From: Ananas comosus
Taxonomy: Eukaryota; Streptophyta; Magnoliopsida; Poales; Bromeliaceae
Assembly (NCBI RefSeq): GCF_001540865.1
Contig: NC_033624.1
Location: 966,735 to 1,030,734, forward strand
Direction of reading: 5' to 3'
Length of the DNA: 64,000 nucleotides
Shown here: in pieces, positions 24,040 through 62,776 of the stretch
Layout of the letters: each line of letters begins with the position of its first letter
Position numbering within the stretch: position 1 is the first letter of the stretch
Translations under genes and position numbers: made by a program
The notes under the pieces: model-generated
What the model saw: the letters and a program-made list of their open reading frames with translations, nothing else
Databases searched by the model: none
Told to the model about the DNA's origin: nothing

Positions 24040-24088
24040 GATAAGGGCACGTACGGTGGTATATCCAAGTGGTACTCCGTCCATCACC

Positions 24089-24982
24089 ATGTCCTTTCTC
24101 TCCTCCTCCAACTCCCGCTCGTACAGCGGCGTGGGTGAGGCGCGCAACGGCCAGCGCCGCAGCGAGTGCTTCGCCAGGTTCTACGAGAACTGGCTCGCCG
24201 AGCAGGAGCGCGACCTTGCGGACCTCCGCTCCGCCGCCGCCGCCGCCGCCGCCCGGGGGGGCGGCGAAGAGGAGGAGGATGGGGGGGGTCGTCGGCCACT
24301 GCAGAATTTAGTCGACAGGGTGGTGGGCCACTACGAGTACTACTACCGCGCCAAGGCGGCGTCGGCGCGCCGCGACGTGCTCCCGATGTTCTCGCCGACG
24401 TGGACGAGCTCGACGGAGAACCTCTTCACCTGGGTCGGCGGGTGGCGGCCCAGCACCGCCATCCAGCTGCTCTACTCCAAGTCCGGCCTCCAGCTCGAGG
24501 CCCGGCTCTCCAACATCATCCGGGCTCTGCCCTCGCCGGACCTGGCGGGCCTCTCGCCGGCCCAGCTGGAGCGGGTCGACCGGCTGCACCGGCGCACCGT
24601 GCGCCGCGAGAGAGAGATCGCCGAGGACGAGGCGGCGGTGCAGGAGGCGGTGGCGGAGGCGAGGATGTTGGAGATCGCGCAGGCGATGAGAGGGTCGGAG
24701 GGGACGGAGGCGGCGGTCGGGGAAATGAGGGGGCAGATGTCGGGGAAGGAGGAGGGGATGGAGAGGGTCCTGGAGATGGCGGACGAGCTCAGAGTGGAGA
24801 CCATCAAGGGGCTGGTGGAGATATTGGAGCCGATCCAGGCCGTGCATTTCCTCATCGCCGCCGCCGAGCTGCAGCTCGCCGTGCGTCAGTTCGGGATGCG
24901 GAAGGACGCCGAGGCCGCAGCGTCTGTCGCAAACGGGGAGAGAGAGCCCCATCTGACGACGGTGATCAGGCCGGCGACTTAA
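24089..24982 (+). CDS. DOG1-domain protein 1 (DELAY OF GERMINATION 1-like / TGA-associated)
   Basis: Intronless, 297 residues. The DOG1 (TGA-type) domain starts with CFARFYENWLAEQERDL near residue 27 and continues through LVDRVVGHYEYYYRAKA, then the hallmark WTSSTENLFTWVGGWRPS block, then a Glu/Arg-rich helical region (LERVDRLHRRTVRREREI) and a C-terminal AVHFLIAAAELQLAVRQFG helix. Domain of this type occurs in seed-dormancy regulators DOG1 and DOGL and in the C-terminal half of TGA bZIP factors. This protein has no bZIP region, so it is DOG1-like rather than a TGA factor. A Gly/Glu-rich insertion near residues 55-72 breaks the first helices. The start at 24089 is chosen because the upstream in-frame ATG (24056) is too close to the TATA box. 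The neighbour at 28281 is a paralogue on the same strand. Confidence 0.85.
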   Translation: MSFLSSSNSRSYSGVGEARNGQRRSECFARFYENWLAEQERDLADLRSAAAAAAARGGGEEEEDGGGRRPLQNLVDRVVGHYEYYYRAKAASARRDVLPMFSPTWTSSTENLFTWVGGWRPSTAIQLLYSKSGLQLEARLSNIIRALPSPDLAGLSPAQLERVDRLHRRTVRREREIAEDEAAVQEAVAEARMLEIAQAMRGSEGTEAAVGEMRGQMSGKEEGMERVLEMADELRVETIKGLVEILEPIQAVHFLIAAAELQLAVRQFGMRKDAEAAASVANGEREPHLTTVIRPAT

Positions 24983-27359: not shown

Positions 27360-28208
27360 GAATTCATGAAAATTTAAAAATTATTTTTTAAAAAAAAATT
27401 TATAAGTTAGATGATTTATTTTTTTAAGTGGAGATTAATGTTTGAACTCAACATCATATATATTTTTATTTTAAAAAGATTGGAAAATAAATTTACATTA
27501 CTCAAATATAATTATCAATATATATTTTTCTTTATTCAAACCATTAATCTCTTATTCTAAACTTTATAAAATACCATGCATTCAAATTTAATTATGAATT
27601 AAAAGAGAGTAAATACTGAGAAAAGGTGAAGAGTTAGAAGAAAATAAATATACATATTTTTTTAAAAAAGAAAGATAATATACTATTTATTTCGTTTAAT
27701 TTTTTTTTAAAAAAATTAGCTGAATACATGAAGCAACTAGGTTTCAAACTTGAGATATTCGATTAGGCAGCAACTAACAAGTCCTATTCATCTGTCTTGG
27801 ATGTATATATATATATATATATATATTTATATCCTTTGGCTATCCATTCTATTCTATGTGTAAATTTTGGGAGGCCTCTAGTTTCAATTTCAATGGTAAA
27901 TATAAAATTAAACTTGGCGCGCGACCTGGCTCCCATGCGGATGGACACGTGGGACCGGCTGCCGCTGGAGCTGGAGCTGGAGCTGGAGCAAGACGAAGAC
28001 GAAGTTGAAGCTTCCCCCTTTTCTTCTCTTTTCTTCCCTTCTCTTCTCTTCTCTTCTCTTCCTCCGCTGCCCTGCAGCCATTCGTTCATTCCTGCATTCT
28101 TTCATTCATTCCGCTAGCTGAAAACTTATCTCGTAAGTAAGGACTTACGAGCGGATGTAGCTAGGAAGGGGACGAAAGAAGCCCAAATGTTTCCTTCTCT
28201 CCGAAGAC
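27360..28208. other. Intergenic DNA with a degenerate SINE
   Basis: About 27700-27790 is a decayed minus-strand copy of the SINE (AACTAGGTTTCAAACTTGAG matches its B-box region). (TA)n at about 27805-27825. A GGAGCT hexamer repeat lies at about 27965-27988. No gene is called. Confidence 0.5.
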
Positions 28209-28280
28209 ATGCAATGGCGCCGCGCCCTATTTATTCAGATGCTACGCACCCCTCCACCTTCCCTTTTGGCCCTTCCGGAG

Positions 28281-28940
28281 ATGGAAATGGAGACGTTCTA
28301 CGAGGGGTGGGTGGCGGAGCAGGAGCGGATCCTGGAGTTGCTCGTCGCGGCGCCCCGCGATCGCCCCGACCTGCACGTCCCGCTCGTCGCCCGCGCCCTC
28401 GCGCACTACGACGGCTACCGCCTCCGCCGCTCCCGGGTCGCGGACCGCGACGTGCTCCGCGCGTTCGACCCGCGCTGGCTGACCCCGCTCGAGCGCTCCT
28501 TCATCTGGATCGCCGGATGGAAGCCCGCGCTCGCCTTCCGCTTCGTCCCCCGCGACGGCGGCGTCGACGACGAGGCGGGGGGGAGGGCGGCGGTGGAGGA
28601 GCTGCGGAGGGAGGTGGCGGAGGAGGAGCGGGCGCTGGCAGCAGCGATGGCGAGGGTGCAGGAGGGGCTGGCGGCGCCGGCGGTGGTGGAGGCGGTGCGG
28701 CGCCCCGGGAGGAACGGCGAGGAGAGGGCCAACGCCGCCGCGGCGGTGGAGGACTCGCTGCGGAGGCTCCTCGACGCCGCCGACGCTCTGCGGGCGCGCA
28801 CGGTGCGGACCATCGTCGACGTCCTGCAGCCCTGGGAGGCGGTGCGGTTCCTCGCCGCCGCCGCGCAGTTCCACCTCGGCCTCCGCCGCGCGGGCCTGCA
28901 GCAGCGCTACAACGAGACAAGGAGGGCCGCCGTCGGATAA
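28281..28940 (+). CDS. DOG1-domain protein 2 (DOG1-like)
   Basis: Intronless, 219 residues from the chosen start. It opens with METFYEGWVAEQERILELL, then LVARALAHYDGYRLRRSRVA, the diagnostic PLERSFIWIAGWKPALAFRF block, a Glu/Ala-rich coiled helical middle, and a C-terminal AVRFLAAAAQFHLGLRRAG helix. The same motifs occur in the same order in the gene at 24089, so the two are tandem paralogues about 3.3 kb apart. The family acts in seed dormancy and related signalling; no bZIP segment is present. An in-frame ATG at 28209 would add 24 residues unlike other DOG1 N termini, and a TATTTAT sequence lies between the two ATGs, so 28281 is preferred but not proven. Confidence 0.82.
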   Translation: MEMETFYEGWVAEQERILELLVAAPRDRPDLHVPLVARALAHYDGYRLRRSRVADRDVLRAFDPRWLTPLERSFIWIAGWKPALAFRFVPRDGGVDDEAGGRAAVEELRREVAEEERALAAAMARVQEGLAAPAVVEAVRRPGRNGEERANAAAAVEDSLRRLLDAADALRARTVRTIVDVLQPWEAVRFLAAAAQFHLGLRRAGLQQRYNETRRAAVG

Positions 28941-37488: not shown

Positions 37489-40400
37489 TCACGTTCCAAG
37501 AGCACGTTGCCACAGAGCCATGGTGTCTATCACTTTTCTTTCAAGTTCGCCGCTTCTAGATAGCTGGTTGTCGAAGATTCGTTTGTTTCGTTCCTTCCAT
37601 AATTCCCAGCAAATAGTTGTGAGCAAGGTGTCGAAGCCTCTTCTGTGCCGGCGTCCTTTGATTGAGATTCGAGCACGATTCCAGCGAGTAGGAAGATCCC
37701 CCGGTAGCGCGAGCAAGGCACGCTGAGTGGTCAAATGGTGTTGAAGCAGATTCGTCCAAACGGTCGTTGAGTATGAGCAGTAGAAGAAGATGTGCTGTAA
37801 ACTCTCGCCGCTTCTTGAGCAAAGGGTACAAATCGATGGTCCAACCCATCCCCTTTTCGCGAGAGTATCGGCTGTCAGAATCTTGTTTCTGGCTGCGAGC
37901 CACATGAAGATTTTCACTCTTAGCGGGATCTTGATCGTCCAGAGGCAAGGAATGTAGTTTGTGTTCACCCCATCATAGATAAGGAAGTTGTATGCTCGTC
38001 GTACCTGAAACCGTCCATCCGCATGCCAACGCCAAGATATAGAGTCGTTGTCGTTTGTAAGTGATGTGTTCTGGAGCAGTACCTGAAGCCGCGGCAGGTC
38101 CTCCTGTTGCTGGTCTCGGCCCAAGCCCGTCCCAAAGCCGAGGTCGATATTGTGGGCAAAACGCTGGATCCATTTAGCTACCGATAGATTTCTGTGCGTC
38201 GAGGCGGCATAGAGATTTGGGAATTGGTGTCTGAGAGTGAGTCCACCGGACCACCTCGCATTCCAAAAGGATGTTAAATGTCCACTTCCCAGCACTACAG
38301 TAGTGGATGCGTGGAGAGACGGTGCGGTGTCGAGGATCCCTTTCCATATCGGGCAGCATCTAAGAGCAGATTTGACTTCAGCTGCAGGGTGCCGGTACCT
38401 GTAGTGTTTTTGCATTAGAAGTTTGACCCAAGGCAGGTTGTGGTAGGTGTAGAAATTCCAGAGTACTTTCATAAGTAAGGCCAAGTTCATGATCCGTAAG
38501 CTTCGGATACCCAAGCCTCCCAATTTCTTTGGCCGGCACACATGTTCCCAGGTAACTAGGCATTGAAAACCATTACGTAGCATTCGACCCCTCCAGAAGA
38601 AGTGGCGGCGAAATTTGTCTATGATATTGAGCACCCAGGTAGGTAGCTTGAACAACGAGCAAAAAAAGGCCGGGATACTTAAGAGTACTGAGTTAATTAG
38701 TATAAGGCGCCCCCCTCTTGAGAGCGTCTGTCCCTTCCAATCCGCAAGGCGCTTGCTGATCCTTTCAATGAGCGGCATGTAGTCAGCTCTTCGCAGCCGT
38801 TTAGGTGAGAGAGGCAATCCCAAATAGTTGAGAGGAAATTCTTTCACTGGGCATCCCAAAGAAGTTGCCAAGGAGGATGCTTGAGCGTCCGGCAAATTGA
38901 TTGGGGTGACGGAGCTTTTGCTGTAGTTGATCTTAAGGCCCGAGCACCCCGCAAACTTGTCCAGAATCAGCTTTACGATCGCCGCCGACCTTGTTGATCC
39001 ATCAAAGAAGATGATCAGATCGTCCGCGAATTGTAGAGTATGCAGGCGGGCATTTCCGATTCCAACGTCCGGTAATAATCCTTCGGTGACGGCAATTTGG
39101 ATAAGTCTGTAAAGGACATCAACACACAGGATAAAGAGAAGTGGGGAGAGCGGGTCACCTTGTCGAAGGCCACGCCTGCACGGGAAGGATCTCCCCGGGG
39201 TGCCATTTAGGATCACTGACGTACTAGCCGAGTGAAGAAGAGAGCGTATCCATGAAATCCAGCGCTGGCTGAATCCCCTCGCTTGGAGAAGGTCAAGCAA
39301 GAAGCTCCAGTCAACTTGATCGAAGGCACGCTCAAAGTCGATCTTCAATAGAGCCGCACGTTGCTTGGTAGTGTACAGGTGATGAATCAAAATGTGGGCG
39401 CAATTGAAGTTATCAGAGATGTGTCTACCCTTTAGGAAGGCCGCTTGATAAGAGTTTATCAATCCACCCAGGACATTCTGTAATCGCGACGCTAGGACCT
39501 TCGAAATCAGTTTGGCGACACTGTGGATCAGGCTAATAGGCAGGAAGTCGTTGGCCGACAGGGCTTCGTTCTTCTTCGGTACGAGACATAACCACCCAGT
39601 GTTGGCTCCCGTGAGATTCGCCAATCCATTGTAGAAGTTATTGAACATTCCCATAATATCGTCTTTGATGAGGTTCCAGAAATGCTGGTAAAAAAGCATT
39701 GGCAATCCATCCGGACCCGGGGCCTTCTCAGGGGCAGAAGAGAATACAGCTGTTTTCACTTCGGAGATAGTGAAGGGGGCATGTAGAGATGAAAGATCAA
39801 TCTGTTGATCTGCGTAAATCGCGTGTAAGTTGATATCGACTGAGGGGTTAAGTTGGACACCCAGCTGGTTGCGGAAGAAGGAGAGGAGATGTCCAGCAAT
39901 CTGATCGGGTGAGGTAAAGGTGCTTGATCCGGTTGAGAGCCTAGAGATGAAATTCTTGCTTCTGCGGGCACTGGCTTGTTGGTGGAAGAATTTGGTGTTG
40001 GCATCTCCCACTTTTAGCCATTGGACTCGAGAACGCTGCTTCCACTTGATCTCCTCCTGCAGACAAATGTCTTCATATCTGGTCTTGAGCTTGGGTCGCA
40101 GAATGTATTCCGGCGTCGTTAGAGGTCGGTACTCTTCAGCCTTGTCCAACCACTCGATCCAAAGAAGGCAGCGTTTACCTTGTTCTCTAGAGGCTAAAGA
40201 GATGTCTGCGCTCCAAGAGCGGAGTGCAGATTGGACCGACTCAATCTTCCGCAAGATAAGATTAACCGGATTTGTGTCATGCAGAACGGACCTCCAGGCT
40301 GCAGCGACGATGCCGCGGAGTGCAGGGTGGCGCAACCAAAAGGCCTCGAATCTGAAGAGGTTAGCAGAAGTATAGGATGAGAGTACCAGAGGAGTGTGGT

Positions 40401-41127
40401 CGGAACGCGGCCGCGGAAGAGCCCTGAGAGCAGATCGGGGAAAAACCAGGGTCCAAGCGTTGGAGATGAAGACACGATCAAGTCGCTCCAGTGTCGAAGT
40501 GACTCTACCGTTAGACCAAGTAAAAGATTTGTTCGCAATGGGGATGTCGATCAGTCCACTCTCCTGGACTGTTTCCCTGAAGCTCAGAATATCGTTGATA
40601 TTTGTAGTCGGTCCGTTCTTGTCCTGAATGGAGAGGAGGACATTGAAATCCCCGAGCACTACCCACGCCCCTGATGATGTTGCGCTGATAGAACGCAGCT
40701 CAAGGAAGAAGTCAGCTTTAAGATTCGGCGCCGTAGGTCCGTGGACATTGGTAATCATAAACATTTTCCCATCCACTTTCCGCTTAAGCACAACGGTGAG
40801 TGAAAACCTGCCCGAATGCTCTCTTACGCAATCGAAAAGAGTCGGATTCCATGCTGTCAACAGACCGCCTCTTGTCCCTTCGGCACCTAAAAAACGGAAG
40901 TCTTGCAGATGAAAGCCCCCAAAGGAGCGAAACTTGTCTTGAGAGATAGAGGAAAGCTTAGTTTCTTGAAAGCACACCACGCAGCATTTACAGTGTTGGA
41001 TGAAAGATTTGACGACCGCACATTTGCGGTTGTCATTGAGACCCCTCACATTCCACGTAAGAAAACGAAAAGTTCTATTCCTGGCCATAAAAAGAGAGAA
41101 AACCCCAAACAGCAAACAGCAACCCAA
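37489..41127 (-). CDS. LINE ORF2: endonuclease-reverse transcriptase
   Basis: 1212 residues without a stop. The N-terminal APE-type endonuclease shows FLTWNVRGLND (Asn25), QETKL (Glu55), GDFN (159-162), LDRVFI and RSDHTP (His244). The reverse transcriptase follows with APGPDGLP (about 469), KIDFERAFD, RRGLRQGDPLSPLLF (about 651) and the catalytic FADD (700-703). The C terminus carries the zinc-binding zf-RVT segment (CTLCSRSGESLQHIFFYCS), then WELWKERNKRIF. This order is that of plant L1-clade elements, whose ORF2 nicks the target and primes cDNA on it. All visible catalytic residues are present. The ATG at 41127 is the first in frame; initiation at the MARNRTF methionine (residue 14) is equally likely. 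Confidence 0.93.
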   Translation of the reverse strand: MGCCLLFGVFSLFMARNRTFRFLTWNVRGLNDNRKCAVVKSFIQHCKCCVVCFQETKLSSISQDKFRSFGGFHLQDFRFLGAEGTRGGLLTAWNPTLFDCVREHSGRFSLTVVLKRKVDGKMFMITNVHGPTAPNLKADFFLELRSISATSSGAWVVLGDFNVLLSIQDKNGPTTNINDILSFRETVQESGLIDIPIANKSFTWSNGRVTSTLERLDRVFISNAWTLVFPRSALRALPRPRSDHTPLVLSSYTSANLFRFEAFWLRHPALRGIVAAAWRSVLHDTNPVNLILRKIESVQSALRSWSADISLASREQGKRCLLWIEWLDKAEEYRPLTTPEYILRPKLKTRYEDICLQEEIKWKQRSRVQWLKVGDANTKFFHQQASARRSKNFISRLSTGSSTFTSPDQIAGHLLSFFRNQLGVQLNPSVDINLHAIYADQQIDLSSLHAPFTISEVKTAVFSSAPEKAPGPDGLPMLFYQHFWNLIKDDIMGMFNNFYNGLANLTGANTGWLCLVPKKNEALSANDFLPISLIHSVAKLISKVLASRLQNVLGGLINSYQAAFLKGRHISDNFNCAHILIHHLYTTKQRAALLKIDFERAFDQVDWSFLLDLLQARGFSQRWISWIRSLLHSASTSVILNGTPGRSFPCRRGLRQGDPLSPLLFILCVDVLYRLIQIAVTEGLLPDVGIGNARLHTLQFADDLIIFFDGSTRSAAIVKLILDKFAGCSGLKINYSKSSVTPINLPDAQASSLATSLGCPVKEFPLNYLGLPLSPKRLRRADYMPLIERISKRLADWKGQTLSRGGRLILINSVLLSIPAFFCSLFKLPTWVLNIIDKFRRHFFWRGRMLRNGFQCLVTWEHVCRPKKLGGLGIRSLRIMNLALLMKVLWNFYTYHNLPWVKLLMQKHYRYRHPAAEVKSALRCCPIWKGILDTAPSLHASTTVVLGSGHLTSFWNARWSGGLTLRHQFPNLYAASTHRNLSVAKWIQRFAHNIDLGFGTGLGRDQQQEDLPRLQVLLQNTSLTNDNDSISWRWHADGRFQVRRAYNFLIYDGVNTNYIPCLWTIKIPLRVKIFMWLAARNKILTADTLAKRGWVGPSICTLCSRSGESLQHIFFYCSYSTTVWTNLLQHHLTTQRALLALPGDLPTRWNRARISIKGRRHRRGFDTLLTTICWELWKERNKRIFDNQLSRSGELERKVIDTMALWQRALGT

Positions 41128-41133
41128 AGAAGG

Positions 41134-46085: not shown

Positions 46086-49000
46086 TTAGTGATCAGAACT
46101 TTCACGTATCGTCTTCTGAAGCATATCTTTAATGAAGGAGCCGAAGCAAGATGAGCAGCAATTGTTTGAAACAAATGCAGGCTCTTTGCCATCGAAGTCG
46201 TGAGAACAGTTGGGAGGAGGCTGAAGGGGGCCTGTGACCATTCTACTGTGGTGCTTAATCCCGAATGCCGCCAAAATAATGTGCGTTGCCCGCCTCGCGA
46301 TGCGCTTGAAATTGTCACGCTCTTCAGTGAATATAAGAAAAGATCAGTTCGCGCGAATAAAGACAAAAAAGAAACCATAATTCAAGTTAATTATATCAGA
46401 GTTTTTACTTTGCATAGAGTGATGCCAATTACAAACATATATCAATAAACAACAATACGTGTCCTACAGAAATCCAAGGTTGTAGTAGATAGTATTTACA
46501 TTTGCAATTGCAGTACTAAAAAAGGGATCAAGCTATGAAGTACCTGCCTATCATACAATATGGCATGCAAACAACTCTAATTACACAAGCATGTAGACAT
46601 AAGCATAAATGCAAAATAGTTGCATAAAATCCTAACAACAGCAAGCAAGCTTTAATCATCAAAGTTTGCGTCCCCAAAAAAAGGTGATGCAGCTCTAAAA
46701 ATATAAGTTCTAAATTCTGATAGCGCATATGATGCTTATAATAGATAAATCAATCACCAAAAAAAAAAAATGGAGCTTGAGAAAACCTACCTAATGGGGA
46801 ATCCCTGGTCAAGCGTTTAAGGTCGCTCTTCACCATGGACTGCACTTGCTCCTTAGCCCCCTCCACATTCCTGAAACTTCTTCCCTCTCTATGCATGCAC
46901 GGAGCCAAATTAGTACGAGACTGAAAAGAATTCACCCCTTCCGCACCATGTAAAGGTTCTCGATTTCTTTGAATTTCTAAGGGCTCACTATCAGATTCTA
47001 TGCCAGGCGTCACACCAGTTCGTGGAAAGATCTGCCTAGATCTGCTACTGTTGGAGAGCAAAATCCTTATACGCTGTTGGATTGCACGCCTCCCAGAAAG
47101 AGTTGACACCTGTGATGCTGCCACCTGGTCCTCCTCGGGAAATTCTCTAGGGGAGAGGTTTAAATCAAACATCGATCTCTGAGGATTAGTATTAGCTGCA
47201 CCTTGAGGTGCATTGATGTCTATTTCAACATTTGCAGGACGGCTTTCATTATTATTTCTAGCTCCCCGATCGAACACGGTATCGGGTGCTTGAGAGAAAG
47301 ATGAGCCCTCTCCTGCAGCTCTACAACACTCACAGTACCAGTTGCCTTCAGGTACTTCTCTTCCCAGGCCAACACAATATGTGTGCGCGGGTGAGTCACA
47401 TATATCACAAAGTAGCATGAGATTATCATCACCACCTTGCTGGCATTCTATACACACGACGCTCTCATATGGATCAAGCATACCCCTCATTTCTTCTTCA
47501 GATGGTTGGTAAACCTGTCAAATTGAATGAAGCCAGACTAAGATATGGATCATAAAGCCCACAGATACTATATTTTGAAATGAACAAGGATGACACAACA
47601 GAAGAAAATAAAAATTAAGCCAAGTCCGTATAAATACGATTTATTTTCTCATGGTACCACGAAAGGGAAAAGGAAAAAGGAAAAGAAAGAGGGAACACAG
47701 CATGAGTCAGAAATCACTGGACTTTGTATCATGCGATTAATTCAAAAATCATCTGAGGGTGAATTTACATATTTTGATAATACACAAACAAACTTTTCAG
47801 CATTGCTATTGATGATCCAATTGTGAATATTGAAGCAAGAAGAAGCTTGAATTCTGGTGATATTAGCTAAACAAAATCAGTGAAGTTGATGCTTGCATGT
47901 CTAAATAATAACCAAAATTTATGCAAGCATGAATGAAAAATGCAGCATAAGCATGCCAAATTCAAAACTCCAAGACAGTCCAGGGATTAGGATCAGCAAC
48001 ATAGAAATATATAGAGCAAGCAAAGAGCTAGTTCAGACCATTATTTATCGAGGATAATTTTAGAAAACCAAAGTTTAATCCCTTATTAGATCACTACATC
48101 TTTAGCCATTTTCAGTACCCTAACAATGCTTAGGACCACAAGCCAAACTATGCAATGTTCATAAAAGGGCAAAAGGTAATAAGGTAAAGGATGGAAAATT
48201 CATATGCTTCAAAAAAGAAAGCTAGATAAATTACTGATAAAATCAACATCTAATAAGTGATCAACTACTGTGCAACAGTCATAATTAATGGCGAAAAGTC
48301 AAAACATGATCATAAATTTCAAGATTACTATTACCAAATTCATAAAAAGATCATAATAAGGCAAGAGAAAAAGGAAGAAGATTATACCTGATCACGCTTC
48401 TCTACCCTTATAACAGGCTTCCTGATTCCTAAACCTAGATCTGACTTGGACGACTTGGTAATAGTCACAAATCTCCTCTTGCAAAGAGGGCACCGCGATT
48501 CCACTTTAGACCACTCCATAATACACGCGAAACAGAAATAATGGGCACAGCAATTCAAAATACCCTGAATCGATGCTTTTTGCTCCTCTGACAAGCAGAT
48601 CCCACAGATCGGCTTTCCCAAATCATCATCAGCCTGTTTCTCCTTCCCTTTCTCCTCATTCTTCCTCCCTGCAAATATCCTCTTCGGCTGCGGGCAGTTC
48701 GTAACCCCTCCAACACCAAGATCACGTAGCTCTTCCTCTGAAATCATGTAATCTGAATCGTCAGATGAATCCAATCTAATCGATGATCGTCGCTTCCTCC
48801 TCTTCTTGCTCTTGACCGGAGCCTCCTCGACAAAATCATCATCATCATCTGACGTCACATATTCGAAATCCGATGTATCTGAATCCACCGACGATCTCTT
48901 CTTCACCGGCGCTGGATTATTTGTTCTGTTTCTTCTCCCAATCTTGTTCCTCTTCTTCTTTGTCTTCCTATTTACTTCCTCCGGATCTTTCACAATGAAA

Positions 49001-49854
49001 TCATCATCTTCGTAGTCATCATCATCTCTCAACTGCTCTCGTCTTCTCCTTCGCCTCTTTCTCGGCAGCTGCTTCACCGTTTTCCTCCCATTCTTTGTCT
49101 TTGAAACCCTAGATTTGCGCTTCCTTCCGATTTTTCTCGTATCTCCATTTCTCCTTGAACCAATCTTGTCAGAGCTCACAAGAACATCAATTTCTTCGTC
49201 ATCTTCCTTATCCGGCGAGAAATCCTCGTCCTCGTCCTCCTCGTCCTCGTCCTCCTCCTCTTCGTAGTCCGAAACCCTAGCTTTCCTGCCGCGAGATCGG
49301 ACCCTCCCCTTCTTCCTCCCAATCGCAGCCGTCCTTTTTTCCTCCTCCTCCTCCTCCTCCTCCTCCNCCGAAACCCTAGCTTTCCTGCCGCGAGATCGGA
49401 CCCTCCCCTTCTTCCTCCCAATCGCAGCCGTCCTTTTTTCCTCCTCCTCCTCTTCCTCCTCCTCCCCCTCATAATCATCATCATCATCATCCGAAACCTT
49501 AGCCGTCCTACCCCTTCTCCGGCCATTAGAGGAGCTCCTCCGTGGCTCCGATCGCGAGATCCTCTTCTTCTCTACCTTCTCCTCCTCCTCCTCCTCCTCC
49601 TCCTCCTCGTCGAACACCGCATCATCGTCCTCCTCGGAGCATGCGGATCCGCCAAAATCGAACTCCTCCTCCCCGGATTCCTCCTCGGAAGCGACCAAGG
49701 ACTCGGCGGAGCTCCCCGACCCCTCCCCGTATTCCTCCTCCGCCACGTACTCCTCATCATCGTCGTCGTCGTCCTCCTCCTCCTCCTTGTATCGCCCCCG
49801 TCGCCGCCGCCTCCCATTGGCCGTTTTGGAGCTCGGCCCCCTCCCTCTCCCCAT
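46086..49854 (-). CDS. RING and PHD finger protein with acidic N terminus
   Basis: Three exons, from 5': 48388-49854, 46791-47514, 46086-46321; 809 codons, 808 residues, phases consistent. The first 300 residues are long Glu/Asp runs alternating with Lys/Arg clusters, fitting a nuclear chromatin protein. A RING finger lies at about 417-458 (CGICLSEEQK, CCAHYFCFACIMEW, CPLCKRRF) and a PHD finger at about 510-553 (CIECQQGGDDNLMLLCDICD, HTYCVGLGREVPEGNWYCEC). RING fingers of this kind often act as E3 ubiquitin ligases and PHD fingers read histone H3 tails; both roles are inferred. The order RING-PHD matches the plant group that includes Arabidopsis At4g10930. MFDLNLSPRE (about residue 594) contains a DLNLSP EAR-like motif. 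The third exon gives RATHIILAAFGIKHHSRMV and ends at SSDH. An in-frame 99-bp duplication in exon 1 touches an N. Confidence 0.85.
49270..49453 (-). repeat. In-frame 99-bp tandem duplication with an N at the junction
   Basis: About 84 bp from 49270 recurs identically at a 99-bp offset from 49369. Each copy encodes KRTAAIGRKKGRVRSRGRK followed by ARVS. The single undetermined base at 49367 lies at the copy boundary inside a (TCC)n run. It may be a real expansion or an assembly error. Confidence 0.8.
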
Positions 49855-52800
49855 ATTACCTAAAAGGGCCTAAATATAGACTAACTTAAAATCGAAATAA
49901 ACTTCGGGCACTTATTTGCGAAAATTCTTTCGTGCGCGAAAATTGATGATGCGTGCGGCCTTGCGACGGAGAAAGGAACAGTTGCTACCAAAAGCACCTC
50001 ATTTTTTTTTTCCTTTTTCTTCTCAATTTAAAAAAAAAAAAAATTGGTGCGTATAAAATAAATAGTAGAAAATACGGGGTGGAGAGAGAAAAAGCGGGGG
50101 GAGGAGTGGGGTGTTGAAGGATCCGTACCTTAGAAGAGAGAGAAGGTCGGCGAAGAGAGGAGAGAGAAAGAGATAGAGAGAGAAAGAGTAAGAGCGAGAG
50201 AGGTGGGGGGCGATTTAAACGGGGGGGAGGTGGAGTAATCGGCGACGTCAAGTGGTGAAATGACCAAAATGCCCCCGTATTAATTTGGGGGCGATTCTTC
50301 AGCGCACCTAATTTCGATGAGCTGGTGTAACGGAAGTGCGGGGCCCACGCATCGTGCGGATGAGAACGCCCGAGGGCCTCATACGGAACACGTGGCGTGG
50401 ATCTACCGGGTGACGGCTTGAGTTAAGCGGTGTTTTTTTGCGGGACACCGTAATGGTTTCGAAACAGCGGCGGGGTGCGGACGCAAACCTGTTTGCGCCA
50501 CCCGTAACGCCGTTTGGTCTTGTCCCAAACGGGTCGGATTCGGATCTGCTCCACTGAGGATCCGAAATTAAATACCAAGCAACCTATGGATAGAAAAGAG
50601 TTTAAATGCATTGCGTCGCAGATGAGCAGCAAGATTATTCTGTCTGCTAAAATATCTGTAACGAATGATAAATTATATCAAGCCAGCCGGTTAAGTTCAA
50701 TCTTGTTCTCAGCTTATTAGCTGGTTGGTACAAGTTATTCTATTCGTACAATTGAAACCAGTTAAAAATACAGGAGCCAAAATTTTCTCTTTCCTAAATA
50801 GAAGCAGCAGCTATTCTTGAACAAGTGCAATATATGCTAACATAAATAAAACCTCACTACTGTTCAATCGCTCTCGTATAGAAACAGCTAAGAAATTTAA
50901 AATTGGAATGGTGATATATATATATATATATTAACATAGGACTTGTTTGGGGAAATTGGTAAATGCCTCAGCATGGGTTTGTAATAAAATATCTGAGCTG
51001 TAGAGAATCTAAGAAAGCATTGAAGCTTTCTTGATGAGTTCCTAAAAAGGGTTCATTCCATTTTGGCCAAGAGCTGGAAGCTTAAGCCATGTAAAGTAAC
51101 GTTTATGATTTTTAGATTCTGTTTCGTTCATAAATGTGTACAAGTTTTAACCCAAATGTAAACACGTGTAAGTGACAAATCAGGTGTCTGAATGGTTTCC
51201 ACAAATAAATGTGTGACAAAAACAAAGTAAACATTTTCCGACTCATAAAAATAAGCAATCGATCGGACAGATAGATGATGTTTTTCTACTATCATAGAGA
51301 AGCTCGAAGCTGAAATATAGAACTGTTGCACAAGCTAGGCCAAACATGCCTCACTTATTATATATGGCGGGCGAATAAAGTTAGAACATAATGTAGAAAA
51401 ATCATATGATTTTTAAGATTCTGTTTGGTTCCGTAACGATACTGATGTAATATGTAAACACATGCAAGTGACAAATCTGACATTTGGCTGGCTCTTGTAA
51501 TTGCGACGCATAAATACATGTAAATGGCGAGTTAGGCATTTGACTAGGTCCATTGAACAGGTGGTCTAATACATAAATAATGTATTTAGCTATCAGACAG
51601 AAGGTTAGATCAGGAGAAAAAAGATTGAACTATCGCACAAGCAAGACGAAATAGGCCTCAATTGTGGTTGGCCAATCTAGTTGAAGGAGAATTTTATTCC
51701 TTTGACCTTTCTTTGGGGCATAATAAAATTGTAACAACCATTTGAGTCTCACTGTTCTCAGTTAAACATGGTGGTTATAAAATCTTAGAACTCTCGAGTT
51801 TTCGTTAAAATATTTCGAACTACTCCTAGGACAAAATTCTCAAACCTGTTATATCATTAGCAAGGTACTCCCAAGGTGTGAGTGATAATTCTTTTCTTCT
51901 ACAATTTGGTTTATTTTGCTAAATCAGATTTGATCAGCTCTTAAATTGATGGGAAGTTAATCACTCATCAACTTACCATTTTCGGAAAAATCTTAGAGGA
52001 AATGAAAGCTACAGGAATGTTATACTCAGCAACTTGCCAAAGAACATATATAGTTTGTTCCAAAAGCGAATAATTAGCGTCGGATGCCGAGTACTCAGAA
52101 CCAGCATCTGACGCTGCAATCGAGCGATTAGTATCTGATTACTCCACGATAATTGATTTGGAACATCTTCCCTATTTCAAAGCCAAAATTAAATATTTAA
52201 CAAACACACAGCCAGAAATTTTCGACGAAGTCGAAAAGATGGAATTAGGATTTAGTGTTTGCAGCTTTGAAAAAAACTGAACTATGTCTCCTGAAAGAAG
52301 AAGTTCCCGAGCATTTCTAATGAAAAAGTTACAAAGCTCGTTCAAACAACTATATTCAAACTAAACATATATTATACTTGGGGTAAGGGAACCCAAGAAG
52401 CCCATCTTATTATCACAACAATTTCTCACACAATCAACTTTAGATTCATAAGTTCTTTTTTTTTTTTGTTGTTGGAAAGCTGAGATTCACAACTTATATA
52501 TTGCTTTATCATAAAACATTTAGAGAATAAGAAATCTGAGATGTGTGAAATTTGGTAACTAGCATTTTGTTGTTGCTTACTTTAAAGAAATAAATAGAAC
52601 ATAGACCAAGTGAGAAAACATAAATGAACCAAATATTATGCCGATGAAAATAAACAAACATAACAATACATTTTTACATACAAGGATAAACAAAATGGAT
52701 AGAGAAAAAGCCCACATCTTAAAACAAAAGGCGAAAAGAAAAAGAAACATGAAAACAGAATTTCTCCACCACCTAGGAGATCTACAGCATATAAACATCG

Positions 52801-54620: not shown

Positions 54621-56193
54621 GGGGGAGGGGGTGAGAGCCGTTAGTTTGTGCACAAGGAAGTCTTTATCTCCAAAAAGAAATCACAATTGATATGGTTTTC
54701 TCACCCGACGAAGCCTATCTTGATCCACCACCAAATTCCTCAGGAAGTCTTGAACAGTAATGATCCCAAAGTCTGCGAGTTTTTTATGAAAAACTCCATC
54801 TTTTCCTATCTTTTCCAACCGCCACACATCATCAAGCAATGCTGGAGGATGATGTTTCTTGTACACTGAAATTCAAAGATATTTTAGATAATGCCGGTAA
54901 CAAAAATTTATTGAGCCATACACCTATAAGCATCAAAATTGCATAAATCTGCCCAAAAAAATTGATTTCCTGATACATATATACTCTTTCCAAAGGAGTT
55001 TAATGAAAATCAGTTTCAAGGACACTTAATGGTATTTAAGGGCATTCTGAGTATTTTTTATGTGTATAAAGGCATATACTATATTGCCAACTTTAAAAGC
55101 CATTAACAAATTTATAGGGTGCATATGTTATTTTCTAGAAAAAATTAAATAGTCAAAAGTTGACAAGATCTGGACTTACACTCTCCTCGGTGATCCTTAA
55201 TACAAAAAGCTTCACTAACTGCTTCATGTACTCTTTCAACTCCAGAATTATTTTGACAGACCCTCGCGCCTAGCCTGAATTTTCGACTTCTTATCCAGCT
55301 GGAGTTATCAGTAAAAGTGGCATCACAAATAAAACCAACCCCATTGCTCAGTGTGATTACCAGTTCCCCAGCGAGTAAAGGTCTTTTGCCCTCTCTTTCA
55401 CGTACAATATTTTCACTGAAATCCTTTTCAGTCCAGCCCAATTGTGAATCCGTTCCAAAATCACCGTCAAGAACAACAATTTCGATCTGGATTGACGATG
55501 AAGGACCGGTTGATATTATCCGGTTTGATGCCGAATCAAAAATTGAAACTTGGATTGGTTTTTTGTTCTCGGTTTCTATTTTGCTGCCTGTGAAGAGTGT
55601 TTGGGGCAGAGTACCCTGGAATTGCAGCCGATATCTTTTGTTTGAAGCCGCCTTAATCTGATGAGGAATTCTAAAAGACAAAATGCAAATGCATCTAAGG
55701 ACAGTAAGAAAAAAGACGAAAAAAAACAATTTTAAGATAGCTGCATGTCTATCAGTAGTTTTAAAGCAGCTTTATTCAGAAAAATGACAACTGACGTCAG
55801 TTTTTTTTGTGATGCTTTTACAAGTTTTGTTTTTTCTGTTAACTCTTGTTGTTTGTGACGATTTCTTTTTTTTGCAAATAAAATTTCTTAAAATTGTCTC
55901 AATAGGTCCCACTCTTAAATTTAAAAAATAAGTGATTCTGAACATGTTCCCAAAATAATAATTCTGATGAATTATTAATTGATATTAAGTGTTGGGCAAT
56001 GATATGAAGCATTTTAATATATAACTTAAAATGACAGCGGTATGGCATATAGTTTCTAAAATGCTTACTTCGGAGCTAAACGCACATGACGATACAGAGC
56101 TTTCTCCACCTCTTCTTGCACCTGATATCCATTACAGAGCACAACATATCAAACAATAAGGAACATTACTTTTCGAGAGGCATCAGAAGTTGC

Positions 56194-59129: not shown

Positions 59130-62100
59130 TCATAAAGTGTTGTCGAAGATTGACGAAAGCACGAGCTCCTGCACGAGCTCACTCCTTCGGGCTCTCTCTT
59201 CCTGATCCTTGTCGGAGAGGGACGGCTCGGTTCTGTAAGATGAAGAACAAGGGATAATAATCAGACTTCAAAACTACCTGCCCCAGCAACTTGCTTTCAT
59301 TACTGTTGGTTTGTTCGACAACACCTTTTTCTGGATATCGGCAACAACAAAGACGAGTGAAAAATAAGTCCGACATTCAGAGTACAGTATTAACCTTAGC
59401 AAAACTGTTGCAATAAGAAGGCATAGGCTCACAAGTCATAAAATTGACTGCAATAGAAGAATTTGATGTTCATTAAAATGTAAAACTTCAACGTCACCAA
59501 TCAATCTTTATAAGCTTATCTAGCATCAGACAGAAAAAAAAAAAAATCTCACGCACTAAATCAACTCCCTTTAGTAACATTCTTACGTCGGACACCATCA
59601 AACCACTCCATGCAGGAAGTGTAAGAAAACTTTCGTTCATACCAAAAAAAAGGGGCATCCAAAGAAATTAAAGATGAGACGACGCAGAAGAGAATAGATA
59701 AAAATGTGTAGAGAAACCATCAAATATAGACCATTTTGAACTTGAATTTTATACTTTTGTACCAACACCCCCTTAAGTATTGCTTGTTTTAATTATTGTT
59801 ATTAGAAATAGTTTAATTGGAAATTCCAGAGAAATGAACCTCTCTGTTACCTATAGGCCAATAAGTATTAATTAAACATCCAATTTTGTCCGGGCGAAAA
59901 GCAGGAGGAGCAATTAAATTTAGTAGGATCACTATTAATTTAACGTGATCACCAATTCAACCAAGGGGAAATAACTCAAATCAAATCGAGCACTAGTAGA
60001 GACATGCCAATTAAAAATATATATAAAATTCAGGGTTAAAATGGTCTAGAATTGAGGGGAGGGGGTACAAATATTTTTCTACTGAAAGAAAAATATGCAA
60101 TCAATAACAACATACCTCTCTACAACTTTTTCATCTGAACAGTCATTAATCAAAAAGGCATTATCCAGTGACTCAGCTTGTAAACCTTTCGGTGATTCAC
60201 CTATGGGCAAATTGTAAACCAGAGATGACAGCAATGGATCGGGTGCAACTGCAGAAGGAGCAGCCGTACAGGAAGATCCTCCAAGAAGAGCTTGTAGATT
60301 GCCATCTCTCAAGTCCTTCCGCAACAAAGAAAGCAGAGAATGGGACCCTGTAGAAGCTTTGCGAAATCTACGTCTACGTTGCAAGTAATCTTCTATTAAG
60401 GAAGGCAAAAGAAACAGCCATTTACCCGCAGTCAGATAAAGAGGTTAAACATATATATTACCCGCTTTGAAATGAGAGTGTCTGAATGTTAAAAGTTTTG
60501 ATGTCACTATGCAACCTCTCGTTATTTTTATTTCTCTACCTTTTGATAATGGAATTTCTAACTCTTTTGACCTGAATATTCTATGAGCTAAAGAAACTTG
60601 ACAGTATATTCCATACATTTTTGACAAAACCTGTTTGTTTTGAAAGAAGCTCACAGAATTATCTGACATCACAAATGATGACGGTTAGGTAGTAAAGCCA
60701 AAAATTTAAAGTTTAGGGACCCATTTTAATATGCACAATTGTTCAAGCAAGGTCTGTATGTTTTAACTATAAACTGTGCTCAATTAAAATCTACAAATAA
60801 ATTTTTCACTAAGATGCTATCAGATAGAGGACTTTGTAAAGTTTGTAGATAACAACCACTGTGGTAAAGGATATTTTGAAGTAACTTCCATGTTGCATTG
60901 TCATGTGCCCAACCAAGTCCATTCCAACCCTCTCTGCACAAATGGGACATACCTGCAAGATGCAACTGATTAGAACTCTTAGCGTCAATACTATCACATT
61001 AATTCCAAAATCTTGAAGGCTAACTTCGTACAACTTTTTGCATGGTTGGGTATATTTATGCATAGTATAATTTCACACACTATGAGCCTGTGTGTAAAGT
61101 GGGCACATCTGCATCTATTTATTTATACATTTGTATGATTCTGCATTTTCACCAACTTCTGTATATAAACACCTTCACAGGAACTCATCCAAGAGTGCAT
61201 GACTAACTTCCTATAGACGACACATGAGACATATTTAAGCTCAACGCATATTGGGGTTCCTATAAAAGAATTTATCCTTTTCTTGTACATGGATTAATTA
61301 TTAACTATTAAGCATCTAGTTGATCGACTAACTGAATTAATTAAAGAAAACTGGAATCCAATTCAACATTTTAGCAAAAGACTAGCACATTGTGACGACC
61401 TGAGTTCTGAGTGGTCATTGCTGGAAAGAGAGAGTGCTTCCTACTAAGCCAATTACTCCTCCCTCTTTAATGTTATAAACATTGCCCATTTTGTGGTTGA
61501 AGAGGAAAATAAACCAACGTAATTTAAGTTTAGTACGAACTGAAATCATTAAAATTAAGAAGAAGAGACAGTTACCACCTTCAGCACCCAATGCAGCCAA
61601 ATTTTTGTTTGTCCAACCTTCGACTTAGTACTCCCTTAGTCACATCACTATGCTAAATGTGAAGTTGGTTATAAGTCGACAATGTGTGATAGTTCTAGAG
61701 AGAAAATGGAAAGCTAGGTGATGGGATCCCCACCAACTATGACAAGTTATTCCAGCTTTGTTCTTACCGATTATCAGTAATGTCTTAATGATTGTCGCAT
61801 TACAGATATCATGCACTTCTCTCCTTTTTATAGACCTTTCCTTTTACAACCTACAGATGAAATAATCGAGCGATCCCAAAATGCACTTCAAATTCCCAAA
61901 AGTGCTGATCCGTCTCTTTTATCTTGGAAACTCGTTTCCAGGATAAAAATACATTTCAGTTTTTTCTCAATTAACTCAATATTACAGTTTTAGTTCCAGT
62001 TGAACATCTACTGGGGTTTCTTCTTCTTTTTTTTCATCCCATCAATACCGACATACACAACTAGAAGTGAGAATTCAACGACAAGCATGTTACTTGGGAT

Positions 62101-62776
62101 GCAACCTCACAGTAATTTTTTCTCCTAAAAGAACAAAAATAGAGAAACCTCAACAAAGTAAACAAATTGATGGGGAAAAAAAGGAGGAGGATTTATATTG
62201 TTGGTGGCAAAATAGAACTATCAAAGCTCAGATTTTTCATTAAAAAACTAAATTAATCAATCAAAATATAGCAAGCAATACAGCTAAAAAAAAAGATCTA
62301 CGCTGAACCCAACTGAGATAAGAGTAAGAAAAAAAGGGACTTATTTAACAAAAATAGAAAGTCCTATGATCCTAATATCGCAGTAATTGTAAGATAAGAC
62401 CTATTCGATTAAGGAAACCGATTCAATACATCTCTAAACCATCGAAAAAGAGAGTAAATACCCCATTTTTAGCCTCGACATGGTGCTCGTCGTCGATGTG
62501 GCAACAAAGCCCCACGAAATCGAAATCCTCGGCGCAGAAGGGGCAGTTGAACTCCGCCCGCGACTCGTCGTCCTCGCCGTCCACCTCTTCGAACCCTAGG
62601 TACAAATCTAGGGTTCCAAAACCCCCGATCAAAAGATTCAAACCACATCGATCGACCAATCGATCCCAAACGAAACAAAAAGGAGGTGAACGGATTCGAG
62701 GGCTCTCACCGTATCGCGATTGGAGGAGGCGCTTCGAGGCGGCGGCGGAGAGGCGGCTCCACGAATCGGCCTCCAT
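59130..62776 (-). CDS. Di19-type (drought-induced 19) zinc-finger protein
   Basis: Five exons, from 5': 62710-62776, 62462-62607, 60875-60952, 60116-60384, 59130-59232; 221 codons, 220 residues, the usual family length. It begins MEADSWSRLSAAASKRL. The two Di19 zinc-binding units are at about residues 44-65 (CPFCAEDFDFVGLCCHIDDE) and 73-94 (CPICAERVGMDLVGHMTMQH). QRRRRFRK after exon 3 is a likely nuclear localisation signal. The C-terminal Di19 domain reads SLLSLLRKDLRDGNLQALLG and ends SELVQELVLSSIFDNTL. Family members are nuclear and respond to drought, salt or ABA, some being phosphorylated by calcium-dependent kinases. Exons 1, 2 and 4 are followed by GT-AG introns. The third intron, between FK (exon 3) and LQRRRR (exon 4), has AT-AC borders. 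The start is the ATG at 62776, which begins the Di19-typical MEAD; an upstream in-frame ATG (62851) is not conserved. Confidence 0.92.
60385..60874 (-). other. U12-type AT-AC intron of the Di19 gene
   Basis: The 490-nt intron starts ATATCCTTTA, the canonical minor-spliceosome 5' site, and ends in AC. A perfect branch-site match, TTCCTTAAT (60395-60403), lies about 11 nt before the 3' end, within the 10-16 nt window known for U12 introns. No GT donor near exon 3 keeps the conserved FK-x-QR junction, whereas this AT-AC splice does. Confidence 0.85.

What the first reader, a model, noticed from the sequence alone, without database searches (positions are those of the whole stretch)
60385..60874. 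AT-AC (U12) intron inside a Di19 gene
The Di19 coding sequence can be joined across this intron only by AT-AC borders. The donor ATATCCTTT is the exact minor-spliceosome consensus, TTCCTTAAT matches the U12 branch site, and the branch-to-acceptor distance is about 11 nt. The join gives FK-LQRRRRFRK, agreeing with the family. AT-AC introns are rare, and one splitting the zinc finger from the nuclear localisation signal of a stress gene could make its expression depend on minor-spliceosome capacity.
Basis: partly seen in the sequence, partly recalled or inferred. Interest (0 to 1): 0.8.

Follow-up and report, generated by a model that had tools for sequence, protein, structure and literature searches.

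The report
Conserved AT-AC intron in pineapple Di19
A pineapple stress gene (Di19) contains a rare AT-AC intron, likely removed by the cell's minor splicing machinery; relatives in both monocots and eudicots carry its likely trace, and since an Arabidopsis Di19 gene is already known to have a minor intron, this is a solid but ordinary new example.

Summary
On the minus strand the window encodes a five-exon Di19 gene whose third intron (60874-60385, 490 nt, phase 0) runs ATATCCTTT...TTCCTTAAT...AC. My spliced model equals an NCBI 220-aa protein of Ananas comosus (isoform X2); isoforms X1-X6 all keep this join. 'Only AT-AC can join the exons' is too strong: two in-frame GT-AG joins lie nearby, and one pineapple annotation uses one, but they fit the family 13-16 bits worse. 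Among 262 collected homologues, 56 carry an insert exactly at this junction; all 56 begin Ile-Ser (49 Ile-Ser-Phe, as ATATCCTTY would read), and 30 of 33 with a readable end have Tyr (as TAC) before the next exon. None of 59 transcript-like entries has it. So the intron is inferred to be shared by monocots and eudicots and often misannotated. AtDi19-2 is a published U12-intron gene, so this is a new member of a known kind. The stress-switch idea is untested; the annotated X1-X6 differences all lie downstream of this intron. Worth testing: the intron lies upstream of the Di19 part resembling the KCMF1 pin that docks into the UBR4/BIG ubiquitin ligase.

The parts
62710..62776 (-). Di19 exon 1 (start codon at 62776)
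   Evidence: spliced protein identical to P0001
62608..62709 (-). intron 1, GT-AG, 102 nt
62462..62607 (-). Di19 exon 2 (first zinc-finger half)
   Evidence: Pfam zf-Di19 at residues 41-93
60953..62461 (-). intron 2, GT-AG, 1509 nt
60875..60952 (-). Di19 exon 3 (second zinc-finger half, ends ...QHGSYFK)
60385..60874 (-). intron 3, AT-AC intron with U12-type sites, 490 nt, phase 0
   Evidence: NCBI isoforms X1-X6 all keep this join
60866..60874 (-). U12-type 5' splice site ATATCCTTT
60395..60403 (-). U12-type branch site TTCCTTAAT; branch A 11 nt from the intron end
60385..60386 (-). 3' splice site AC (intron end GATTAC)
60116..60384 (-). Di19 exon 4 (LQRRRRFRK..., start of Di19_C)
59233..60115 (-). 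intron 4, GT-AG, 883 nt; the protein differences among isoforms X1-X6 all begin after residue 158, in exon 4 or later
59130..59232 (-). Di19 exon 5, encodes the C-terminal stretch ERARRSELVQELVLSSI that lines up with the KCMF1 pin
   Evidence: (end printed one base short; corrected)

Best explanation
Intron 3 of this pineapple Di19 gene is an AT-AC intron with U12-type donor and branch sites, and it is predicted to be removed by the minor spliceosome as a constitutive step, joining the zinc-finger exons to the exons for the basic stretch and the C-terminal helix. Inferred: U11/U12 recognise ATATCCTTT and TTCCTTAAT, and the exon ends ...TTCAAA and TTGCAA... are joined in phase 0. If the intron is left in, translation would run 21 codons into it and stop (118 aa), giving zinc fingers without the basic stretch and the C-terminal helix; the stop would lie 693 nt upstream of the exon 4/5 junction, so that RNA would be a candidate for nonsense-mediated decay. 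The intron is inferred to be old: relatives in monocots and eudicots show the likely translated trace of the same intron ends. Its persistence needs no special regulatory role.
For: Exact donor, branch site, spacing and AC at the position fixed by homology, joint chance about 4e-10. Best of the five splice types tabulated (GT-AG, GC-AG, AT-AC, AT-AG, GT-AC) on a family profile, 389.1 bits against 379.4 for the best GT-AC and 376.4 for the best GT-AG. The join gives a protein identical over 220 aa to P0001; isoforms X1-X6 all keep it. 59 of 59 transcript-like homologues read straight through the junction. 56 of 56 inserts at this junction begin I-S (49 ISF), and 30 of 33 with a readable 3' end have Y before the next exon, the reading of ...TAC (no other kind of insert was hidden among the 'direct' ones). 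AtDi19-2 is a U12-intron gene whose splicing was defective in u11-48k mutants (PMC4892727, passages). Retention arithmetic.
Against: No RNA reads were available here. The homologues' DNA was not read; ISF and Y are translations. The X1-X6 isoforms are gene models and I could not check their read support. Two of 33 readable 3' ends (P0043 L, P0198 I) do not fit YAC; one H (P0191) could be CAC; in 23 of the 56 the 3' end could not be read. Two GT-AG in-frame joins lie near the junction, and the var. bracteatus protein P0003 uses one.
Confidence: 0.95

Rival explanations
1. The intron is an ordinary GT-AG intron that starts 11 nt upstream (60885, GTTACTTCA) and ends at 60390 or 60393, as in the annotation of Ananas comosus var. 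bracteatus (P0003, ...QHGNYLQRRRR).
For: Both joins keep the frame; P0003 carries exactly the 60885/60390 product.
Against: 12.7 and 15.8 bits worse on the family profile; deletes the nearly invariant F-K (28-sequence alignment A2); the donor departs from the usual GTAAGT (recalled consensus); isoforms X1-X6 all disagree.
Confidence: 0.02
2. It is an AT-AC intron spliced by the major (U2) spliceosome.
For: Such introns exist: 85 'major AT-AC introns or related subtypes' were examined in human cells (PMC8280824, passages).
Against: Exact U12 donor and branch consensus with 11 nt spacing; only 4 of the 11 bases between branch A and the intron end are pyrimidines, so no tract there (read from the sequence); AtDi19-2 responds to loss of a minor-spliceosome protein.
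Confidence: 0.03
3. One reading: the intron is a stress-responsive brake, so Di19 output tracks minor-spliceosome capacity in drought or cold.
For: [quoted passage not shown] in Arabidopsis mutations in DROL1, ortholog of CENATAC's main interactor TXNL4B, impair AT-AC introns (as cited in PMC11039992, passage). Retention would give a truncated product.
Against: No expression data here. All differences among isoforms X1-X6 lie after residue 158, downstream of this intron. Di19-2 splicing was not significantly altered in u11/u12-31k (PMC5853960, passages). A survey of over 3,000 genomes argues that neutral processes explain much of minor-intron evolution (PMC10639083, abstract start, passages).
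Confidence: 0.1
4. The I-S inserts in homologues are real protein isoforms made by a downstream GT donor, not misannotation.
For: Some inserts are short and in frame, e.g. ISFL in the pineapple paralogue P0062, whose cluster has 5 members.
Against: 0 of 59 transcript-like entries has one; insert length and the residues after I-S-F differ widely between species.
Confidence: 0.05

Closest known systems
Arabidopsis Di19-2 U12 intron (papers on U11/U12-31K and U11-48K mutants)
   Same: Same gene family, a U12-type intron studied by RT-PCR in minor-spliceosome mutants (PMC3422263, PMC4892727, PMC5853960; passages read)
   Different: Different species and possibly a different paralogue; the passages do not state its position or its end dinucleotides, so identity of position is not established, only made likely by the protein traces in other plants
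NCBI gene models of Ananas comosus protein DEHYDRATION-INDUCED 19 homolog 2-like, isoforms X1-X6
   Same: The very gene; X2 (P0001) is identical to the AT-AC spliced model
   Different: I saw names and protein sequences only; the names say nothing of the intron type
A-type (AT-AN) minor introns dependent on CENATAC (human) and DROL1 (Arabidopsis)
   Same: AT-AC ends with U12 sites (PMC8280824 and PMC11039992, passages)
   Different: Dependence of this intron on either factor is untested
UBR4/BIG complex with KCMF1 or plant DI19
   Same: Pineapple Di19 matches the DI19 chain of PDB 9qt9 (E 5.1e-58) and, more weakly, KCMF1 (6.1e-08); the C-terminal helix lies downstream of the U12 intron
   Different: DI19 lacks the ZZ domain of KCMF1 (PMC7618180, passages), and Pfam finds none in the pineapple protein; binding in pineapple untested

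Membership tests
U12-type (minor) intron, AT-AC subtype | 5' splice site ATATCCTT | tested here: met
   ATATCCTTT at 60874-60866, minus strand; the consensus is recalled
U12-type (minor) intron, AT-AC subtype | branch site TTCCTTRAY close to the 3' end | tested here: met
   TTCCTTAAT at 60403-60395, branch A 11 nt from the end; the consensus and usual range are recalled
U12-type (minor) intron, AT-AC subtype | AT...AC termini supported by the coding join | tested here: met
   Best of the splice types tabulated on the family profile; identical to isoform X2
U12-type (minor) intron, AT-AC subtype | conserved position and type in relatives | tested here: met
   56 of 56 inserts at the junction begin I-S, 30 of 33 readable ends are Y; protein level only, homologous DNA not read
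U12-type (minor) intron, AT-AC subtype | splicing depends on U11/U12/U4atac/U6atac | not testable with these tools
   needs RNA from depleted plants
Di19 | zf-Di19 and Di19_C domains | tested here: met
   PF05605 86.3 bits (cut-off 27.5), PF14571 103 bits (cut-off 29)
UBR4/BIG cofactor (KCMF1/DI19) | C-terminal pin helix | tested here: inconclusive
   residues 169-215 line up with KCMF1 286-328 at only 8.4 bits (i-Evalue 16); by count, the pin residues L318/F319/V320 mutated in PMC7618180 fall inside that stretch, and the paper reports pin homology for DI19 (passages)

The most novel reading that the evidence does not exclude
The Di19 AT-AC intron ties minor splicing to protein quality control: whenever it is left in, plants lose the pin-bearing half of Di19 and with it the plant UBR4/BIG ubiquitin E4 complex, so minor-spliceosome (DROL1-type) capacity sets the level of that complex.
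Probability: 0.08. Interest if true: 0.65.

Novelty: new member of a known kind. Interest (0 to 1): 0.3.

Why it matters
It supports by an independent route an AT-AC intron at this codon and makes it likely that monocots and eudicots share it. It shows a practical problem: 56 of the 262 Di19 proteins collected carry what look like misread intron starts, and two pineapple entries (P0003, P0006) mangle the junction. It also suggests a cheap general test: an Ile-Ser-Phe insert at a phase-0 exon junction points to a misannotated AT-AC intron from proteins alone.

Tried and rejected
Rejected: a GT-AG join. Rejected: motif matches alone as evidence, since each 9-mer is about as common as chance in the window. 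Rejected: the I-S inserts as conserved isoforms. No relatives were found in viral contigs (15 pattern matches, none confirmed). Rfam at its gathering scores found no RNA family in the window, so no recognised minor snRNA gene lies here.

Papers: 10 of 10 searches used. In the held library no paper had both 'U12-type intron' and 'pineapple' or 'drought-responsive family protein' and 'U12'; of two with 'Di19' and 'AT-AC' one was PMC4892727 and the other a sports paper. A U12 survey of Arabidopsis that I recalled by its DOI is not held; Suzuki 2022 on DROL1 is known to me only through PMC11039992. So whether the Arabidopsis intron is AT-AC at this same codon was not checked in print.

Classification: the 262 proteins are the listed rows (best 120 each) of three searches with 1144, 1213 and 484 hits, overlaps merged. 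One search gave 197 direct, 53 I-S, 2 other, 10 unlocated, with a looser rule, 202 direct, 56 I-S, 2 other, 2 unlocated. One search checked the 202: 200 are plain direct joins, P0003 is the forced GT-AG join and P0067 lacks residues at the junction. The six that are neither plain direct nor I-S are P0003, P0006, P0067, P0075, P0086 and P0127; in P0003, P0006, P0075 and P0127 a Y precedes [ML]Q. The 59 transcript-like entries were picked by hand from the three tables (no NCBI, UniRef or nr source; contig under 2 kb, or a Trinity name). The third search was seeded with an insert-bearing segment, so 56 of 262 is no natural frequency; among the 120 listed in the first search it was 11.

Full report
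What is there. The finding lies in a five-exon gene on the minus strand (62776 to 59130). Introns 1, 2 and 4 are GT-AG; intron 3 is 60874-60385, ATATCCTTT...TTCCTTAATAGAAGATTAC, phase 0, 490 nt. The spliced product is 220 aa with zf-Di19 (41-93) and Di19_C (115-215) above Pfam cut-offs. It is identical to P0001, named by its source as protein DEHYDRATION-INDUCED 19 homolog 2-like isoform X2 of Ananas comosus. I take the window to be from pineapple on that ground.

Is the AT-AC reading needed? I tried 33,820 donor/acceptor pairs around the junction; 4,878 keep the frame open. On a profile from 96 non-pineapple Di19 proteins the AT-AC pair scores 389.1 bits, the best of the five splice types tabulated. 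The best GT-AC pair scores 379.4, the best GT-AG 376.4 (intron 60885-60390) and the next GT-AG 373.3. ATATCCTTT and TTCCTTRAY are each about as common as chance in the window; together, at the position fixed by homology, chance is about 4e-10, and 60874 is the only donor in the window followed by a matching branch site and an AC or AG. Two further ends for the same donor (497 and 501 nt) came up in that scan and would break the frame.

What annotations do. Isoforms X1 (P0002), X2 (P0001), X3 (P0008), X4 (P0005), X5 (P0009) and X6 (P0004) all keep the AT-AC join and differ only after residue 158. X3, X5 and X6 lose the C-terminal helix through changes downstream of this intron. The var. bracteatus protein P0003 has the GT-AG product HGNYLQ, and P0006 has a frame-shifted second zinc finger ending ...SEDYLQ. 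Whether reads back X1-X6 I could not see.

A trace of the intron in protein databases. The three protein searches listed 262 different homologues (capped lists). At the FK|[MLV]Q junction 56 of them carry an insert. All 56 start I-S: 49 ISF, 2 ISC, 2 ISL, and one each ISS, ISY, ISI. What follows differs widely between species. In 33 the next exon's start is readable: 30 have Y just before it, one H, one L, one I; in 23 it is not readable. A check of the 202 tagged as direct found no hidden insert at the junction. ATATCCTTY reads I-S-F, and an intron ending ...TAC reads Y; a GT intron in this phase would give V first. By the names, 12 of the 56 are monocots (Canna, Iris, Aegilops, Ananas, Dioscorea, Ensete, Asparagus, Musa, Dendrobium) and 44 eudicots (for example Gossypium, Populus, Vitis, Rhododendron, Malus, Citrus, Linum, Arachis, Sesamum). 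None of 59 transcript-like entries has the insert. A small control at the intron 2 junction is mixed: three inserts begin with V (P0006, P0197, P0038), as GT would read, but one (P0074) begins with N, and 39 of 262 could not be located there.

Known or new. Arabidopsis Di19-2 serves in three papers as a U12-intron gene. PMC3422263 lists it among U12-intron transcripts, low at 3 days, and counts Di19 among genes whose splicing needs U11/U12-31K. PMC4892727 reports its splicing defective in u11-48k. PMC5853960 reports it not significantly altered in u11/u12-31k, and unable to rescue that mutant, which sits badly with the first. I read passages of each, not the whole papers. The pineapple case is a new member of that known kind. 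AT-AC introns as a subclass depend on CENATAC in human (PMC8280824, passages) and on DROL1 in Arabidopsis (cited in PMC11039992, passage).

Mechanism. Shown: the sequence elements and the fit of the join. Inferred: minor-spliceosome removal. Predicted: retention would end the protein after 118 aa, without the basic stretch RRRRFRK and without the C-terminal part; the stop would lie 693 nt before the exon 4/5 junction, hence a candidate for nonsense-mediated decay (rule recalled). The C-terminal part matters because Arabidopsis DI19 was put forward as the plant counterpart of KCMF1, whose C-terminal helix inserts like a pin into UBR4; a mutated KCMF1 pin yielded monomeric UBR4 (PMC7618180, passages). 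Pineapple Di19 matches the DI19 chain of 9qt9 over 17-218, and its ERARRSELVQELVLSSI lines up with ERADRSLFVQELLLSTL of KCMF1, though that stretch scores only 8.4 bits. So intron 3 lies between the zinc fingers and the presumed pin. Whether plants use this as a switch is unknown; the annotated variants of this gene that lose the pin arise downstream of intron 3, which speaks against the U12 intron as the main control point.

Verdict. Interest 0.3.

Noticed in passing
59130-60384 (minus) and proteins P0004, P0008, P0009: Three of six NCBI isoforms (X3, X5, X6) lose the C-terminal helix that resembles the KCMF1 pin, through changes downstream of the U12 intron; such pinless Di19 could compete with full-length protein.
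   Followed up: partly
homologues P0041, P0043, P0062 and 53 others: Likely misannotation: intron start translated as Ile-Ser-(mostly Phe) in database Di19 proteins; the pineapple paralogue P0062 (ISFLKRRKP, 5-member cluster) is the least easily dismissed.
   Followed up: partly
37489-41133 (minus): 1,214-aa uninterrupted ORF with endonuclease, reverse transcriptase and zf-RVT domains, looking like a LINE-type retrotransposon.
   Followed up: no
24041-24982 and 28161-28940 (plus): Two ORFs with a DOG1 (seed dormancy) domain whose starts are about 4 kb apart, perhaps a tandem pair.
   Followed up: no
55145-55771 (minus): ORF with the N-terminal domain of calmodulin-binding proteins (Calmodulin_bind), about 3.4 kb from Di19.
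   Followed up: no
46750-47517 and 48382-49869 (minus): PHD-finger ORF and, upstream of it, an acidic ORF with an undetermined residue (X) in a repeat and a cysteine pattern that looks like a RING finger by eye (not tested); perhaps one gene.
   Followed up: no
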